Assembly (NCBI GenBank): GCA_945862235.1
Contig: CAMAYU010000005.1
Span: 1 to 64,000 of the forward strand
Direction of reading: 5' to 3'
Source of the DNA: Schlesneria paludicola DSM 18645
GTDB lineage: Bacteria; Planctomycetota; Planctomycetia; Planctomycetales; Planctomycetaceae
DNA: 64,000 bases
This document shows positions 56,056 through 62,750 of the stretch, one piece after another; the stretch's first letter is position 1; the number at the start of each line of letters is the position of its first letter. Position numbers and translations under genes: made by a program. Under the pieces are notes generated by a model that was not told the DNA's origin, ran no database searches, and saw only the letters and a program-made list of their open reading frames with translations.

Positions 56056-56070
56056 ACGTGACCGACAAAT

Positions 56071-56181
56071 AGTCGCCTTCATCGCTCCGCGTGAAGAAAG
56101 CCGAGTCACCAGCGACCCAAATCCCGAAAAACGCGTCGTTCGCCATTCCGCTCACTTCACGCGGAGCGATGAAGGCGACTT
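56071..56181. repeat. Palindromic element, family B (copy B1)
   Basis: The left arm AGTCGCCTTCATCGCTCCGC and the right arm GCGGAGCGATGAAGGCGACT are exact inverses, extended by GTGAAG/CTTCAC. The loop is about 55 bases. It lies between xylA and the second-last DUF1501 gene, and shares its stem with the copies at 57690 and 61800. Confidence 0.9.
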
Positions 56182-56219
56182 TTGGCGGGCGCATCAAGAA
56201 TGCCCGTCCTACGTATCGA

Positions 56220-57647: not shown

Positions 57648-57834
57648 GATCCCGAAATGTTGTCGGGCCGCGCACATTGGGATTGTCTGAAAGTCGCCTT
57701 CATCGCTCTGCGTGAAGAGAGCAGATTGGGAGTGGGACGATGACGATGCCAATCCCTGACCGCATCACACTCGGCTTCCTTCACGCGGAGCGATGAAGGC
57801 GACTTGTTTGCGACCAAAGGTCGCGTCGTTTAAC
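57648..57834. repeat. Composite palindromic element, family B (copy B2)
   Basis: A ~40-base leader (ATCCCGAAATGTTGTCGGGC) precedes a long hairpin at 57690-57806 (arms AAAGTCGCCTTCATCGCT and AGCGATGAAGGCGACTT). A second short hairpin GCGACC-AAA-GGTCGC and GTCGTTTAACC follow. The copy at 61760 has the same four-part layout. It lies upstream of the pseudokinase-PP2C gene. Confidence 0.85.
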
Positions 57835-57840
57835 CCCCGA

Positions 57841-57954
57841 CACGCCAACCCGCAGCGTGAGCGAGGACGATCACTTATGTCGTCGTTCAAGCGAGTCCCG
57901 CGAACGCCTGTCATTCCGAATCGCACCTTCTCGCTCACGCTGCGGGTTCGTGTG
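57841..57954. repeat. Palindromic element, family A (copy A5)
   Basis: Arms CACGCCAACCCGCAGCGTG and CACGCTGCGGGTTCGTGTG with GAGCGAGGA / TTCTCGCTC inside. It follows the family B element directly and is upstream of the PP2C gene's start codon. Confidence 0.85.
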
Positions 57955-58113
57955 AATCGTGGCCGGAGTGTAACCGAGTTCATCGGCCACGGACCAACTC
58001 GAACACCGTCTGTTCTTGGAATCAGCCGCATTGCATGTCGTCGCAACGACCGGTATGAACGGCTCGGCTTTATCGCCATCGAGACCGACAATGTTGAAGC
58101 GGGGCTGATTCGC

Positions 58114-60198
58114 ATGTCGCAGAGTGTGCCACCGGCGGGAGCGCGTTGCCCTCGGTGCGATCGCGTGTCGCTCGACCTCGCGTATTGCGAGCATTGCCAG
58201 TCGGAGTTACCCGCAGCGGTGAACGATTCCCCGCTGGGATTCCCTGCTCTGTTGATCGACGCCACCTCCACCGTGAATTCGGCGATGGCTTCCGAGTGGA
58301 GTCTCGCGGCACTGAGTGTCGGTTGGCCTGATGACCCGAGTCGTGCATTCGAGGTGAATGTGGGTGCCGCCGCGTTCCGTGTCCGCGCAATTCGCCCCGC
58401 GCTGTGGCCGGACCTCGCGCCGGAGGTGAGATCACGTCAAGCGGTCTCGCTCCCCGTCTTGCCTCTTGTGCATGTGATCGAACTCGGCGGCGGCGCAATC
58501 ATCGCGGCAGAGTCTTGGAACAACCGTAGTCCCGACGCTCCGCCGGCGGGACCGAACGATCTGAACAGCAATCTCACCATACCAACCCGCAGCGTGAGCG
58601 AGGACAACGGTGCCAGCGAGCGCGATGAATTCATCGGCGTCGAATCAACTTCATCCTCGCTCACGCTGCGGGTTGGTGTGGATGAGAACAGTCCTATCTC
58701 CGCACTGCTCGAAGAGACGCTGCGAGTCGCTCGTTTACTCAACATTGCCATGACGGGCCTCCATGACTCGGGGCACGTCTGGCTGGAGTTCGATCCGCAG
58801 GCGATCGAAGTGGGCGAGTCGCTCGTGCGCGTCACCAATCTCGACTGGCGGCTGTTCCCGATCGGGCGTTGTCCCAGCCATCTCGCACGCATCTCGCCAC
58901 AGTACTCGCCCCCCGAAGTCTGTCGCTTTCACGACGACTGGATTGGGCCGAGGACCGATGTCTATCACCTCGCCCTGTTCGTCTATTATCGCTTGGCTGG
59001 GTTGTGGCCCGGTGGGTTTGCTGGTCGCGGGTTGGAGGCGTTTGAATTTGAGTTGCCGCCGCTGCGAGTCTTTCGTCCAGACTTGCCCGTCGGAATCTGG
59101 CCAGTCCTCCGTCGCGCCCTCTCAATCAACGTGGCCCATCGTCCGGCGACGACGTTTGAACTGATCGAGGAACTCGAATGCGCGGCCGCTTCCACACCAA
59201 CCCGCCGCGTGAGCAAGGATGTTCTCACAGACGCAGTCGCAGCATCCTTGCTCACGCAGCGGGTTGGTGTGGATGACCCGTCGTTTGGGCCGCGCTCGCA
59301 AATCGACCTCGGCTGGCTCACTGCACCCGGTCGCGCGAAGTCGGCCCTTGGCGCGGTGAACCAAGACCAAGCCGTCGTCGTAAGCGAGACCGTTTGCGGG
59401 CGCGAGATTCAACTGCTGATCGTGGCCGACGGTGTGACGCACGCACGGGTCGGAACCGGTGAACTGGCGAGCGGCCTCGCGTGCGAGCTGCTGCTCACAT
59501 CGATGCGAAGCCAGTTGGCCACGCTCGCCGAGGCTGACGAACCCGCGTGGCCGACAGTGTTGGACGCCGCGTGCGTCGCCGCCAGCGAAGCGATTGTCCG
59601 CGAAGCCCTCTCACTCCCGGACCGTCCCGTCCCGACGCGCGACAACGACTTGATGAGTACCACCGCGTTGATCGGCATTCTTGATGGCGACGAATTGCAT
59701 CTCGCGAACGTCGGTGACAGTCGCGCCTATCTCGTCGCGAACGGCTTCGCCGAGCAACTGACGGTGGACGGCGATGTCGCCTCGTCACAGCTCGCCCTCG
59801 GAACTCCACCCGAACAAGTTCAGGAACTCGGCGCGGCGGGCAAGGCGCTGCGGTTTTGCTTGGGAGCGTGCCGCGAAACGGAGTCTGGTGAACTGGTCGT
59901 CGATGTCGAGCGAGCACGACCGCAGATCAGCCACTGGCGACTGAAACCCGGTGACACAATCGTCCTGTGCTCGGACGGCCTCGTCGAAGAGCGGGTCTTT
60001 CTCGAACCGGAAGACCTCGCCACGATCATCGACGCTCGGCATGACCTCACCTCACAACAGCTCGCGGAAAATCTCGTCGCGGCGGCCGATGCCAAACAGC
60101 GCCTGCCCTCATCGACGGAACCGAATGGTTACGGAGACAACATCACCGCGATCGTGCTGCGGTTCGCCGAATGGCAAATACACCAACCCGAAGCGTAA
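58114..60198 (+). CDS. Zinc ribbon-pseudokinase-PP2C fusion protein
   Basis: A 694-residue protein. A zinc ribbon (Cys12, 15, 25, 28) comes first. Residues ~60-360 resemble a Ser/Thr kinase, but catalysis looks lost: the HRDxKPxN loop reads WLEFDPQAI (Glu225 for Asp), DFG reads TNLDW (Asn242 for Asp), while the scaffold YSPPEV (Glu268), DVYHLALFVYYRLAGLWP and RPATTFELIEEL remains. From ~393 is an intact PP2C phosphatase: NQD (Asp418), VADG (Asp439), NVGDSRAYL, CSDGLVE (Asp621), GDN (Asp675). Family A repeats are translated in frame at ~157-189 and ~361-386, and the ending HQPEA plus TAA comes from a third. ATG 58114 is chosen because upstream frame is repeat. Confidence 0.85.
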   Translation: MSQSVPPAGARCPRCDRVSLDLAYCEHCQSELPAAVNDSPLGFPALLIDATSTVNSAMASEWSLAALSVGWPDDPSRAFEVNVGAAAFRVRAIRPALWPDLAPEVRSRQAVSLPVLPLVHVIELGGGAIIAAESWNNRSPDAPPAGPNDLNSNLTIPTRSVSEDNGASERDEFIGVESTSSSLTLRVGVDENSPISALLEETLRVARLLNIAMTGLHDSGHVWLEFDPQAIEVGESLVRVTNLDWRLFPIGRCPSHLARISPQYSPPEVCRFHDDWIGPRTDVYHLALFVYYRLAGLWPGGFAGRGLEAFEFELPPLRVFRPDLPVGIWPVLRRALSINVAHRPATTFELIEELECAAASTPTRRVSKDVLTDAVAASLLTQRVGVDDPSFGPRSQIDLGWLTAPGRAKSALGAVNQDQAVVVSETVCGREIQLLIVADGVTHARVGTGELASGLACELLLTSMRSQLATLAEADEPAWPTVLDAACVAASEAIVREALSLPDRPVPTRDNDLMSTTALIGILDGDELHLANVGDSRAYLVANGFAEQLTVDGDVASSQLALGTPPEQVQELGAAGKALRFCLGACRETESGELVVDVERARPQISHWRLKPGDTIVLCSDGLVEERVFLEPEDLATIIDARHDLTSQQLAENLVAAADAKQRLPSSTEPNGYGDNITAIVLRFAEWQIHQPEA
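58581..58680. repeat. Family A palindrome inside the pseudokinase-PP2C gene (copy A6)
   Basis: Canonical arms ACCAACCCGCAGCGTGAG and CTCACGCTGCGGGTTGGT around a loop of ~50 bases. It is translated in frame as PTRSVSEDN ... SLTLRVGVDE, between the N-lobe-like and C-lobe-like halves of the pseudokinase. Confidence 0.9.
59194..59270. repeat. Family A palindrome inside the pseudokinase-PP2C gene (copy A7)
   Basis: Arms ACACCAACCCGCCGCGTG and CACGCAGCGGGTTGGTGT with GAGCAAGGAT / ATCCTTGCTC. Both arms differ from the canonical GAGCGAGGAC in the same two pairs, so pairing is kept. It is translated as PTRRVSKDV ... LLTQRVGVDD in the linker between pseudokinase and phosphatase. Confidence 0.9.
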
Positions 60199-60278
60199 GC
60201 GAGGACGCGCGATGATCATCTCTCCGAATTGTTGGTCGTTGGCGACGTTCGCCCTCGCTCACGCTGCGGGTTAGTGTG
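60179..60278. repeat. Family A palindrome at the end of the PP2C gene (copy A8)
   Basis: Arms ACACCAACCCGAAGCGTA and ACGCTGCGGGTTAGTGTG with AGCGAGGA / CCTCGCT inside. The left arm gives the last codons HQPEA and the TAA stop of the PP2C gene; the right arm ends about 50 bases before the VWA start. Confidence 0.9.
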
Positions 60279-60328
60279 CCTCGGGCAATCGCTCTGTCGC
60301 TGGGTGCTTCGTCTGGAAAGGACTGATC

Positions 60329-61735
60329 GTGGCCGAAGAATTTTTGTTGGAGTGCAAGCTCGACCAACCCGCCGTGTTGAACGGCCGGTCGGCGGATGTC
60401 TATAGCCTCGTCACGATCAAGCCGAACGGCGCGCGGCTGGGGTCGCTACTTGAATCATCGGGCGGCGCGAGTCTCCCCGCGCATCTGATCGTGATCGTCG
60501 ATGTCAGCGGCTCGATGAACACGCTGATCGAACCCGATCCGCACGCGAGGATCGTCGGTTCCGCCACCGTCGAAGGCCGGACAATGACCGAGGTTGTCGC
60601 GTCGGTCCCGAGTCGCCGAATGGTCGCGGTCAACGTCGTCCGTCGTTTGGTCGAGCGAATGGAGCCGTCCGACCGCATGACGCTGGTCGCGTTCGATGAG
60701 GGGGCTTATCCACTCGCGAAGGGACTTTCACGCGGCCGCGAACTCGACGACGCCGTTCGCCAACTGGTCGATGTCGGCGGCGGAGGAACATCACTGGGAC
60801 TGGCGTTTGGTGCCGTGAAGAAGTCACTCACGGGAGCCGAGAGTCGGTCGGAGACGCGGCGGATCGTGTTGCTCACCGACGGCGAAGACAGCGATGAAGA
60901 CTCCGCGTTGCGCGAGGCGACTCAGTTAGGAGAAGAATTCCGTTTGCCGATCTTCGCGCTCGGCACGGGCGACTCGCGAGCCGACTTCCTGATGAAGGTC
61001 TGCGGCACAACTCTCGGCGGCGCGTTCGACAATCTCAAGAACGAGCGCGAGGCCGAAGACTGTTTCGACAAAGTCTTCACCGGCCAGAAGAACATCCTCG
61101 CGACCAACGTCTCGCTGCAACTCTGGCTGTCGCCCGAAATCTTCGTCCGCGAACTCTATCGCACCAAACCCGAAGTCCTGTTCGTCGGCGATATGCAGCC
61201 CGACGCAGGCAACACGGTCTCAATCCCGTTGGAATACATGGAGCGCGGCAAGGTCTACGAGGTGCTGTTCCGCAGCACGGTCCCCGCCCGCGATGCCGGC
61301 CGGTTCCGACTCGCCAAAGCGACGCTCACGTTTGACGTTCCGGCTCTCGGCGTGATCGGCGGTCGCGTCGAAGCGAACATCGCCATCGAATCAACCGCCG
61401 ATGAAGCCCGCACATTGATGCGCACCGGCGACGTGCGACGAGTCATCACGCAGGCGGAAACTCAGCGCCAGTTGCTGTTCCTCCAAGAGAAGCGTGATCT
61501 GCTCGAACGAGGGCAGGCGACTGCCAAAGACAAGAACGTCGTCGCCAAGTTGCTCGATGCCCTTGTGAAGAAGTTTGAAGAACAGGGCGATCAGGCGAAC
61601 CTCAACATCTACCGCCAAATGCGCGACGACTACGTTCGGCAAGGAACGATCACACAAGAAATGATGAACCGCTCACTGGCCGCCTCATCGAAAGTCGAGG
61701 GAGCCATCGCCGTCCAAGAGGTCGATGATTTTTGA
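60329..61735 (+). CDS. VWA domain protein of the PP2C/FHA signalling module
   Basis: A 468-residue protein with a von Willebrand A domain at about residues 50-240. The metal site (MIDAS) is complete: DVSGS (Asp58, Ser60, Ser62), Thr154 in GGGGTSLG and Asp184 in LLTDGEDSD. The part from ~245 to ~355 looks like a beta-sandwich, and the final ~100 residues are helical. No signal or membrane segment is seen, so it is cytosolic. The start is GTG at 60329 with AAAGGA six bases upstream. It follows the PP2C gene and precedes the FHA gene. VWA-PP2C-kinase triads (TerY-P type) are known; this resembles one in content but the domain architecture differs. Confidence 0.88.
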   Translation: MAEEFLLECKLDQPAVLNGRSADVYSLVTIKPNGARLGSLLESSGGASLPAHLIVIVDVSGSMNTLIEPDPHARIVGSATVEGRTMTEVVASVPSRRMVAVNVVRRLVERMEPSDRMTLVAFDEGAYPLAKGLSRGRELDDAVRQLVDVGGGGTSLGLAFGAVKKSLTGAESRSETRRIVLLTDGEDSDEDSALREATQLGEEFRLPIFALGTGDSRADFLMKVCGTTLGGAFDNLKNEREAEDCFDKVFTGQKNILATNVSLQLWLSPEIFVRELYRTKPEVLFVGDMQPDAGNTVSIPLEYMERGKVYEVLFRSTVPARDAGRFRLAKATLTFDVPALGVIGGRVEANIAIESTADEARTLMRTGDVRRVITQAETQRQLLFLQEKRDLLERGQATAKDKNVVAKLLDALVKKFEEQGDQANLNIYRQMRDDYVRQGTITQEMMNRSLAASSKVEGAIAVQEVDDF

Positions 61736-61759
61736 GCCGGAACGATCCTCGTACTACTA

Positions 61760-61944
61760 GGTCTCGAAATCTTGTCGGGCTGCGCGCATTTGATTTGCCT
61801 GAAAGTAGCCTTCATCGCTCCGCGTGAAGAAAGCCGAGCGCGAGTTCGGTGCCGATTTGTCAAATCATGGTTGACTCACATTCGGCTGACTTCACGCGGA
61901 GCGATGAAGGCTACTTTGGCTGCGGCAAAGCCGCGTCGTTTCAC
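61760..61944. repeat. Composite palindromic element, family B (copy B3)
   Basis: It has the same four parts as B2: a leader (GTCTCGAAATCTTGTCGGGC), a long hairpin at 61800-61919 (arms AAAGTAGCCTTCATCGCT and AGCGATGAAGGCTACTT), a short hairpin TGCGGC-AAA-GCCGCG, and GTCGTTTCACC. Several stem differences from B2 are compensated in the partner arm. It lies between the VWA and FHA genes. Confidence 0.85.
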
Positions 61945-61988
61945 CGTCCCGATCATCCCTCCTCGCACCACTCGTAAAGGAAGCCTCC

Positions 61989-62750
61989 ATGCCTCAATGC
62001 GCCGTCTGCGATGAAGCCCTTCAGCCCGAGCAGAAGACCTGCCATGTGTGCGGTTCGACGGTGGAAGCGACCGCGCCCGCGAGTTCGCCTCCCGCACTCC
62101 CGCCCCTGCCACCGATGCCCCCCGCGTCGCTCGTGTCCGTTGAGAGTGACGGCGCGGCAAGCGACAGTGCGGAATCGACTCACGGTGAACGCGAATGTCC
62201 CGCGTGCGGCCTGACGTTTGGTGCGTCTCATCAGGACGAGTTCTGTTCGTGCGGCACCGAGCTTCAAGCACGCACGAGTTCGTCGGTCGCTCCCGCTGGA
62301 ACAACCTCCCCATCGGCGACCTCGCTGCCACCGATCCCCGCGCCGCCCGAGTCCGCTCCCGCAGCCCTCGCCGGAACAACACGCCCTCCAGCCGGAACGG
62401 TCTGCTTGGTCGTCTACTCCGACACCAAGCCGCGCCAGCCCGTGCGCTACTTCCCCATCAACAAGGATGTCGTGGTCCTCGGCCGACAAGACGCCGTGCG
62501 CGGTGACTTCCCCGATCTCGATCTCAGTTCGTTGGTGGACGAGTCCCTGTCGCGCAAGGTCTCGCGCCGCCATGCCGAAGTCCTGCGCGCCCGCGACACG
62601 CAGACGTTCACACTGCGACCGCTCCCCGGCAATACGGGAACTCAAGTCGGAAAAGAACTCGCCCAACCCGGCCAGAACTACCCCCTCACCGATGGCACCC
62701 CCATCATCCTCGGCGGCGTCATCTGGCTGAAGTTCGAGACGATCGCGTGA
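61989..62750 (+). CDS. Double zinc ribbon-FHA domain protein
   Basis: A 253-residue protein. Two zinc ribbons come first (Cys4, 7, 18, 21 and Cys70, 73, 86, 88), joined by a Pro/Ala/Ser-rich linker, followed by an FHA domain at ~138-250. FHA signatures are VLGRQDAV, SRKVSRRHAEVLRA (the conserved Ser-Arg-x-His) and NTGTQVG, which together bind phosphothreonine peptides. Because the domain is intact, this protein could read phosphorylated partners. It ends the module after the PP2C and VWA genes, each separated by repeats. Upstream kinases are not in the window. AAGGAAGCC precedes the ATG. Confidence 0.88.
   Translation: MPQCAVCDEALQPEQKTCHVCGSTVEATAPASSPPALPPLPPMPPASLVSVESDGAASDSAESTHGERECPACGLTFGASHQDEFCSCGTELQARTSSSVAPAGTTSPSATSLPPIPAPPESAPAALAGTTRPPAGTVCLVVYSDTKPRQPVRYFPINKDVVVLGRQDAVRGDFPDLDLSSLVDESLSRKVSRRHAEVLRARDTQTFTLRPLPGNTGTQVGKELAQPGQNYPLTDGTPIILGGVIWLKFETIA

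What the first reader, a model, noticed from the sequence alone, without database searches (positions are those of the whole stretch)
57841..62750. Candidate new signalling module: zinc ribbon-pseudokinase-PP2C, VWA, and zinc ribbon-FHA proteins
Seen: three consecutive same-strand genes encode a PP2C phosphatase fused to a degraded kinase, a VWA protein with a full metal site, and an FHA protein; the first and third carry zinc ribbons. Known: VWA-PP2C-kinase triads (TerY-P) and FHA readers occur in bacterial phospho-signalling. Inference: the pseudokinase could be a scaffold, with the phosphatase removing marks that the FHA protein reads. I know of no described system with this exact layout.
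Basis: partly seen in the sequence, partly recalled or inferred. Interest (0 to 1): 0.82.

Follow-up and report, generated by a model that had tools for sequence, protein, structure and literature searches.

The report
Split five-gene bacterial phospho-signalling system
The three genes are part of a five-gene bacterial protein-phosphorylation circuit (an active kinase, a phosphatase fused to a dead kinase, a phospho-reader, a metal-site adaptor and a giant second dead kinase) that has been cut in two in this planctomycete, and four of its parts also sit together in Deinococcus and cyanobacteria, yet I found no description of it as a system.

Summary
Window genes A (58114-60198, zinc ribbon-pseudokinase-PP2C), B (60329-61735, VWA with intact MIDAS) and C (61989-62750, two zinc ribbons plus FHA) are real, same-strand and conserved in other Schlesneria genomes. 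In relatives the set continues with D, a Ser/Thr kinase with a complete catalytic set, and E, a 1,400-1,700 aa protein with a second degenerate kinase domain. In the window's own genome D-E sit on another contig. Distant planctomycetes keep the order A-B-C-D(-E) at about 20-30% identity to the window. Of 392 phylum genomes, A and B occur in the same seven and E in six of those. All five occur in the same 4 of 15 genus members, although three of the four have different breaks in linkage. Deinococcus and Nostoc carry adjacent quartets with the same four protein types, including the pseudokinase-PP2C fusion. Best reading: a kinase/PP2C/FHA/VWA phospho-switch in which D writes, A erases, C reads, and B and E act as adaptor and scaffold. 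It works like TerY-P or the T6SS threonine-phosphorylation pathway but fails defining features of each. Substrates and signal are unknown. New variant of a known kind.

The parts
58114..60198 (+). Gene A: zinc ribbon - pseudokinase - PP2C phosphatase (694 aa)
   Evidence: orthologues 54-56% identical overall (59-63% in the aligned segments) in G003, G004, G013
58147..58197 (+). Zinc ribbon of A (C12, C15, C25, C28)
   Evidence: invariant in ten planctomycete A proteins; absent from the Deinococcus and Nostoc A proteins
58663..59193 (+). Degenerate kinase C-lobe of A (residues 184-360; HRD replaced by WLE, N by A, DFG by DWR)
   Evidence: hhalign to kinase D, probability 96.8; PDB StkP/PknB matches; motif table
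59305..60171 (+). PP2C domain of A, all metal-site Asp present (D418, D439, D535, D621, D675)
60329..61735 (+). Gene B: VWA protein (468 aa) with MIDAS and a long C-terminal part ending in a Ser/Thr-containing tail
   Evidence: distinct family with an E-value gap 1e-155 versus 1e-29
61989..62750 (+). Gene C: double zinc ribbon - Pro-rich linker - FHA (253 aa)
62475..62714 (+). FHA domain of C with phosphate-binding residues intact
58577..58682 (.). R1 palindromic repeat in frame in A (about 50 aa between the kinase lobes, absent from orthologues)
59191..59273 (.). R1 palindromic repeat in frame in A, in the linker between pseudokinase and PP2C
60183..60278 (.). R1 palindromic repeat that supplies A's stop codon and separates A from B
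61802..61917 (.). R2 palindromic repeat between B and C

Best explanation
The three genes are the A-B-C half of a five-component protein-phosphorylation switch whose other half, D-E, lies elsewhere in the same genome. Shown: D has every residue of a working kinase, A has every residue of a working PP2C behind a degraded kinase domain, C has a phosphopeptide-competent FHA domain, B has an intact MIDAS, E begins with a second degraded kinase domain, and the genes are inherited together. Inferred: D phosphorylates Ser/Thr sites, perhaps in B's conserved C-terminal tail or in E; C docks on the phosphosite through FHA and so assembles a complex; A resets it; A's and E's pseudokinases act as docking or allosteric modules; the zinc ribbons are metal- or redox-responsive docking elements; the signal is probably stress-type.
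For: Order A-B-C-D-E is intact in Schlesneria G013 and in distant G164, G083 and G128; order A-B-C-D in G117 and G108. All five occur in the same 4 of 15 genus genomes, although linkage is broken between C and D in G000, between B and C in G003, and A|B|C-D-E in G004. Phylum-wide, A and B are in the same 7 of 392 genomes and E in 6 of those (chance about 4e-15 and 1e-11, and 4e-5 for each pair after dropping genomes used to build the profiles). Kinase K/E/D/N/D and PP2C Asp residues are invariant in all relatives aligned. Related quartets occur in Deinococcus and Nostoc, with profile matches A-A 99.5 over 395 columns and B-B 99.8 over 376 columns. Three D. radiodurans genes annotated VWFA, Zn-finger+FHA and PP2C are co-induced 3.7-4.3-fold in an oxyR mutant (PMC2225504).
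Against: No biochemical evidence. Substrate, signal and output are unknown. The FHA asparagine motif is not conserved in the distant planctomycetes. B's match to the Deinococcus and Nostoc VWA proteins is only slightly better than to generic VWAs, so common descent of the quartets is likely, not proven. The shared-presence statistics ignore phylogeny. Gene order differs between phyla. The structure prediction of A failed, so the kinase fold rests on profile comparison only.
Confidence: 0.62

Rival explanations
1. It is a TerY-P triad (VWA + PP2C + kinase) that gained an FHA protein, acting as a metal- or stress-responsive or defence-associated switch.
For: Same three enzyme/adaptor types; TerY-P kinases carry zinc ribbons (PMC11090510); kinase D resembles defence kinases MAD6 and PD-T4-6.
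Against: As described, TerY-P has a kinase with a C-terminal zinc ribbon or OB-fold; D has no zinc ribbon in planctomycetes and an N-terminal one in Deinococcus and Nostoc. TerY-P has no FHA or pseudokinase as described. B matches no PADLOC model. No restriction system adjoins the planctomycete loci read here.
Confidence: 0.15
2. The quartet is the threonine-phosphorylation control unit of a secretion or envelope machine, like PpkA-PppA-Fha of type VI secretion.
For: Same logic (kinase, PP2C, FHA, and, from memory, a VWA domain on PpkA); PpkA is among the PDB matches to the pseudokinase; TPP literature PMC5995506, PMC3953482.
Against: No T6SS genes recognised beside any locus examined. VWA and kinase are separate proteins here.
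Confidence: 0.08
3. Independent parts: each gene serves a different pathway and adjacency is incidental.
For: Linkage is broken in three of four Schlesneria genomes; kinases, FHA and VWA proteins are abundant in planctomycetes (25 FHA matches in G000).
Against: The parts are retained together after linkage is lost; the same order is kept in distant families; B is a narrow family.
Confidence: 0.07

Closest known systems
VWA / kinase / zinc ribbon-FHA / pseudokinase-PP2C quartets of Deinococcus (NZ_CP031159, NZ_CP097150, NZ_OV024759; probably DRA0331-DRA0334) and Nostoc plasmids (AP018225, NZ_CP046711)
   Same: Same four protein types adjacent on one strand, including zinc ribbon-FHA and a degraded kinase fused to PP2C
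   Different: Gene order B-D-C-A or B-C-A-D; zinc ribbon on the kinase, not on PP2C; kinase carries TM or TPR tails; no E protein seen
TerY-P triad (Anantharaman et al. 2012, as described in PMC11090510)
   Same: VWA, PP2C and Ser/Thr kinase with zinc ribbons in one neighbourhood
   Different: No FHA and no pseudokinase fusion in the description; zinc ribbon is C-terminal on the kinase there; B is about 440-470 aa, much longer than a VWA domain
PpkA-PppA-Fha threonine phosphorylation pathway of T6SS
   Same: Kinase, PP2C and FHA logic, with a VWA domain
   Different: VWA fused to the kinase there; T6SS genes adjoin; no pseudokinase-PP2C
Actinobacterial GAP1-N2 neighbourhoods with kinase-zinc ribbon, PP2C and stand-alone vWA (PMC7159879)
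   Same: Kinase, PP2C and vWA linked
   Different: GTPase-centred system; no FHA gene or pseudokinase named
PRK14559 / NF011149 Ser/Thr phosphatase family
   Same: About 640 aa protein with C-terminal PP2C; weak match to A in the PP2C part
   Different: Scores far below the family cut-off; N-terminal part does not align

Membership tests
TerY-P triad | VWA, PP2C and Ser/Thr kinase genes as neighbours | tested here: met
   A, B and D in one cluster (with C) in G013, G164, G083, G128, G108, G117
TerY-P triad | Kinase fused at its C-terminus to a zinc ribbon (or OB-fold) | tested here: not met
   D has no zinc ribbon and ends with the kinase domain; definition from PMC11090510
TerY-P triad | Only three components, no phospho-reader | tested here: not met
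   FHA gene C lies between B and D wherever B and D share a contig
TerY-P triad | VWA belongs to the TerY clade | not tested
   no TerY reference fetched; PADLOC models give no match to B
T6SS threonine phosphorylation pathway (PpkA-PppA-Fha) | Genes lie within a T6SS cluster | tested here: not met
   no T6SS genes recognised in the flanks of the loci read
T6SS threonine phosphorylation pathway (PpkA-PppA-Fha) | FHA protein binds the phosphothreonine made by the kinase | not testable with these tools
   needs binding assays
VWA-kinase-FHA-PP2C quartet (Deinococcus / Nostoc type) | All four protein types encoded together | tested here: met
   in the window genome itself only by counting two contigs
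VWA-kinase-FHA-PP2C quartet (Deinococcus / Nostoc type) | PP2C fused to a degenerate kinase domain | tested here: met
   hhalign A7 vs A9 99.5, 395 columns spanning pseudokinase C-lobe and PP2C; motif table
VWA-kinase-FHA-PP2C quartet (Deinococcus / Nostoc type) | Shared descent of the VWA component | tested here: inconclusive
   B HMM scores 97-128 bits for these against 103 for the best generic VWA
Pseudokinase | Kinase homology with lost catalytic motifs | tested here: met
   A; E: hhalign 99.0 to D, titin kinase E 1e-11, no HRD or DFG

The most novel reading that the evidence does not exclude
A previously undescribed, multi-phylum phospho-signalling system with one active kinase, a PP2C controlled by its own fused pseudokinase, a zinc ribbon-FHA reader, a MIDAS adaptor and, in planctomycetes, a giant membrane- or FnIII-linked second pseudokinase; the pseudokinases sense a ligand or the active kinase and set the phosphatase.
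Probability: 0.45. Interest if true: 0.75.

Novelty: new variant of a known kind. Interest (0 to 1): 0.6.

Why it matters
Pseudokinases are well studied in eukaryotes, where several act as allosteric switches, but bacterial examples wired to a phosphatase are little described. Here a dead kinase is physically fused to the eraser of a phospho-circuit, and a second dead kinase is the largest component, next to a live kinase. Because D. radiodurans appears to carry a related quartet and is tractable, the question of what a bacterial pseudokinase does to a phosphatase becomes directly testable. The split arrangement in this genome also shows how a single-window reading can miss half of a system.

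Tried and rejected
The named genome-contig scan with B's profile used poor patterns and found only two Schlesneria records. A viral contig scan with kinase D found nothing. PADLOC kinase matches of D (PD-T4-6, MAD6) are read as generic kinase similarity, not evidence of defence. A weak A-like gene in G186 has no B, C or D beside it and was set aside. Cyanobacterial chromosomal copies could not be searched with the tools at hand. Literature searches found no description of the quartet as a unit, but the library holds open-licence papers only.

Full report
What is there. The window belongs to a Planctomycetota genome (G000) whose nearest named relatives are Schlesneria MAGs. Three + strand genes lie at 58114-62750. 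A (694 aa) has an N-terminal CPxC...CxxC ribbon, a kinase-like middle and a PP2C domain; B (468 aa) is a VWA protein; C (253 aa) has two zinc ribbons and a C-terminal FHA domain. The kinase nature of A's middle is not visible to Pfam but is clear with a seven-member profile: it matches StkP at E 3e-7 and PknB at E 2e-6 and the family's own kinase D at hhalign probability 96.8. It is degenerate: HRDLKPxN reads WLEFDPQA and DFG reads DWR, and no relative keeps the full set. PP2C metal-site aspartates, the MIDAS of B and the FHA arginine, serine and histidine are intact.

The module is larger than reported. Orthologues of A, B and C occur in the same 4 of 15 genus-level genomes and in none of the 44 other genomes of the family and class sampled. 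In G013 the set runs A-B-C-D-E without interruption (D and E characterised), and G003 has the same order with one opposite-strand gene inserted between B and C. D is a 360 aa kinase with Lys, Glu, Asp, Asn and Asp all conserved in 13 relatives. E is 1,613-1,716 aa in Schlesneria, with an N-terminal degenerate kinase domain (hhalign 99.0 to D; titin kinase E 1e-11), HEAT-like and C2H2-like stretches and hydrophobic segments. In the window's genome D and E are adjacent on contig C14, not beside C; C is followed here by an Rrf2 regulator and what reads as a sulfate-type ABC transporter. In G004 A, B and C-D-E are on three contigs, with unrelated genes beside A and B. Three of the four genomes thus have different breaks, yet no component is missing.

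Distance test. A profile of B separates sharply in 392 phylum genomes: seven score 1e-155 or better, the next 1e-29. A's profile finds the same seven (plus one partial A-like gene in G186), and E's finds six of them plus a 59%-complete MAG. Gene order A-B-C-D-E is kept in G164, G083 and G128, A-B-C-D in G108 and G117, at roughly 20-30% identity to the window proteins. E is unlinked in G108 and G146 and not found in G117. The overlap is far from chance, also after dropping genomes that contributed to the profiles (4e-5), though phylogenetic non-independence is not corrected.

Beyond planctomycetes. tblastn against plasmids with B and D led to Deinococcus and Nostoc records in which a VWA protein, a kinase, a zinc ribbon-FHA protein and a PP2C protein are adjacent on one strand. 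Their PP2C proteins also carry a degenerate kinase domain; the profile alignment with A spans 395 columns through both domains. The VWA proteins align over 376 columns, but only marginally better than generic VWAs, so common descent of the whole quartet is likely rather than proven. In D. wulumuqiensis the quartet follows pprA and lexA. In D. radiodurans, DRA0331 (VWFA), DRA0333 (Zn-finger+FHA) and DRA0334 (PP2C) are induced 3.97-, 4.28- and 3.67-fold in an oxyR mutant (PMC2225504); equating these with the locus in L138 rests on annotation and order.

Mechanism. The anatomy gives a writer (D), an eraser (A), a reader (C), an adaptor (B) and a scaffold (E). I infer that D phosphorylates Ser/Thr sites in the complex, that C binds them, and that A reverses them under control of its pseudokinase. 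B's C-terminal tail holds Ser/Thr-Lys motifs (SSKV, SKSKT, RKTVKM) in all lineages and is my first candidate for the phosphosite; this is a guess from sequence. The distant planctomycete FHA domains lack the usual N-x-G, so phosphopeptide binding may not be universal.

Comparison. It works like TerY-P and the T6SS threonine phosphorylation pathway but fails defining features of each (membership table). No paper found in the open library describes the quartet as a unit; that is weak evidence of novelty since most subscription papers are not held, and the proteins are individually annotated in public records. I rate it a new variant of a known kind.

Side finding. Gene A in this genome carries two in-frame copies of a palindromic repeat with 385 half-sites in the genome; a further pair supplies A's stop codon. 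The first copy adds about 50 residues absent from the three orthologues.

Noticed in passing
window 57841-57954, 58577-58682, 59191-59273, 60183-60278: Palindromic repeat R1 (half-site CCAACCCGCAGCGTGAGCGAGGA, 385 sites in the genome, reversed-pattern control 1). Two pairs lie in frame inside gene A and one supplies its stop codon, resembling Rickettsia palindromic elements (comparison from memory). Most other window copies are outside long ORFs or at their edges.
   Followed up: partly
window 56068-56183, 57690-57805, 61802-61917: A second palindromic repeat family R2 (CTTCACGCGGAGCGATGAAGGC arms) placed between genes, including upstream of A and between B and C.
   Followed up: no
L132 13761-16739; L138 17888-20851: In Deinococcus the quartet is followed by a roughly 990 aa gene annotated as a right-handed beta-helix protein; in L132 the translation starts with a zinc ribbon and kinase domain before the repeats, a possible output or sensor.
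   Followed up: no
L132 6008-7591: In D. wulumuqiensis the quartet directly follows pprA and lexA, DNA damage genes.
   Followed up: no
L082 and L087 (G004 C1403 and C370): Two different C-terminal fragments of an E-like protein in one MAG, suggesting a second E copy or a mixed bin.
   Followed up: no
L148 9649-11127 (G186): Stand-alone pseudokinase-PP2C-like protein similar to A (E 2e-85) with no B, C or D beside it.
   Followed up: partly
L062 5714-10555: E proteins of Schlesneria contain several CPxC...H..H C2H2-like fingers, unusual in bacteria.
   Followed up: no
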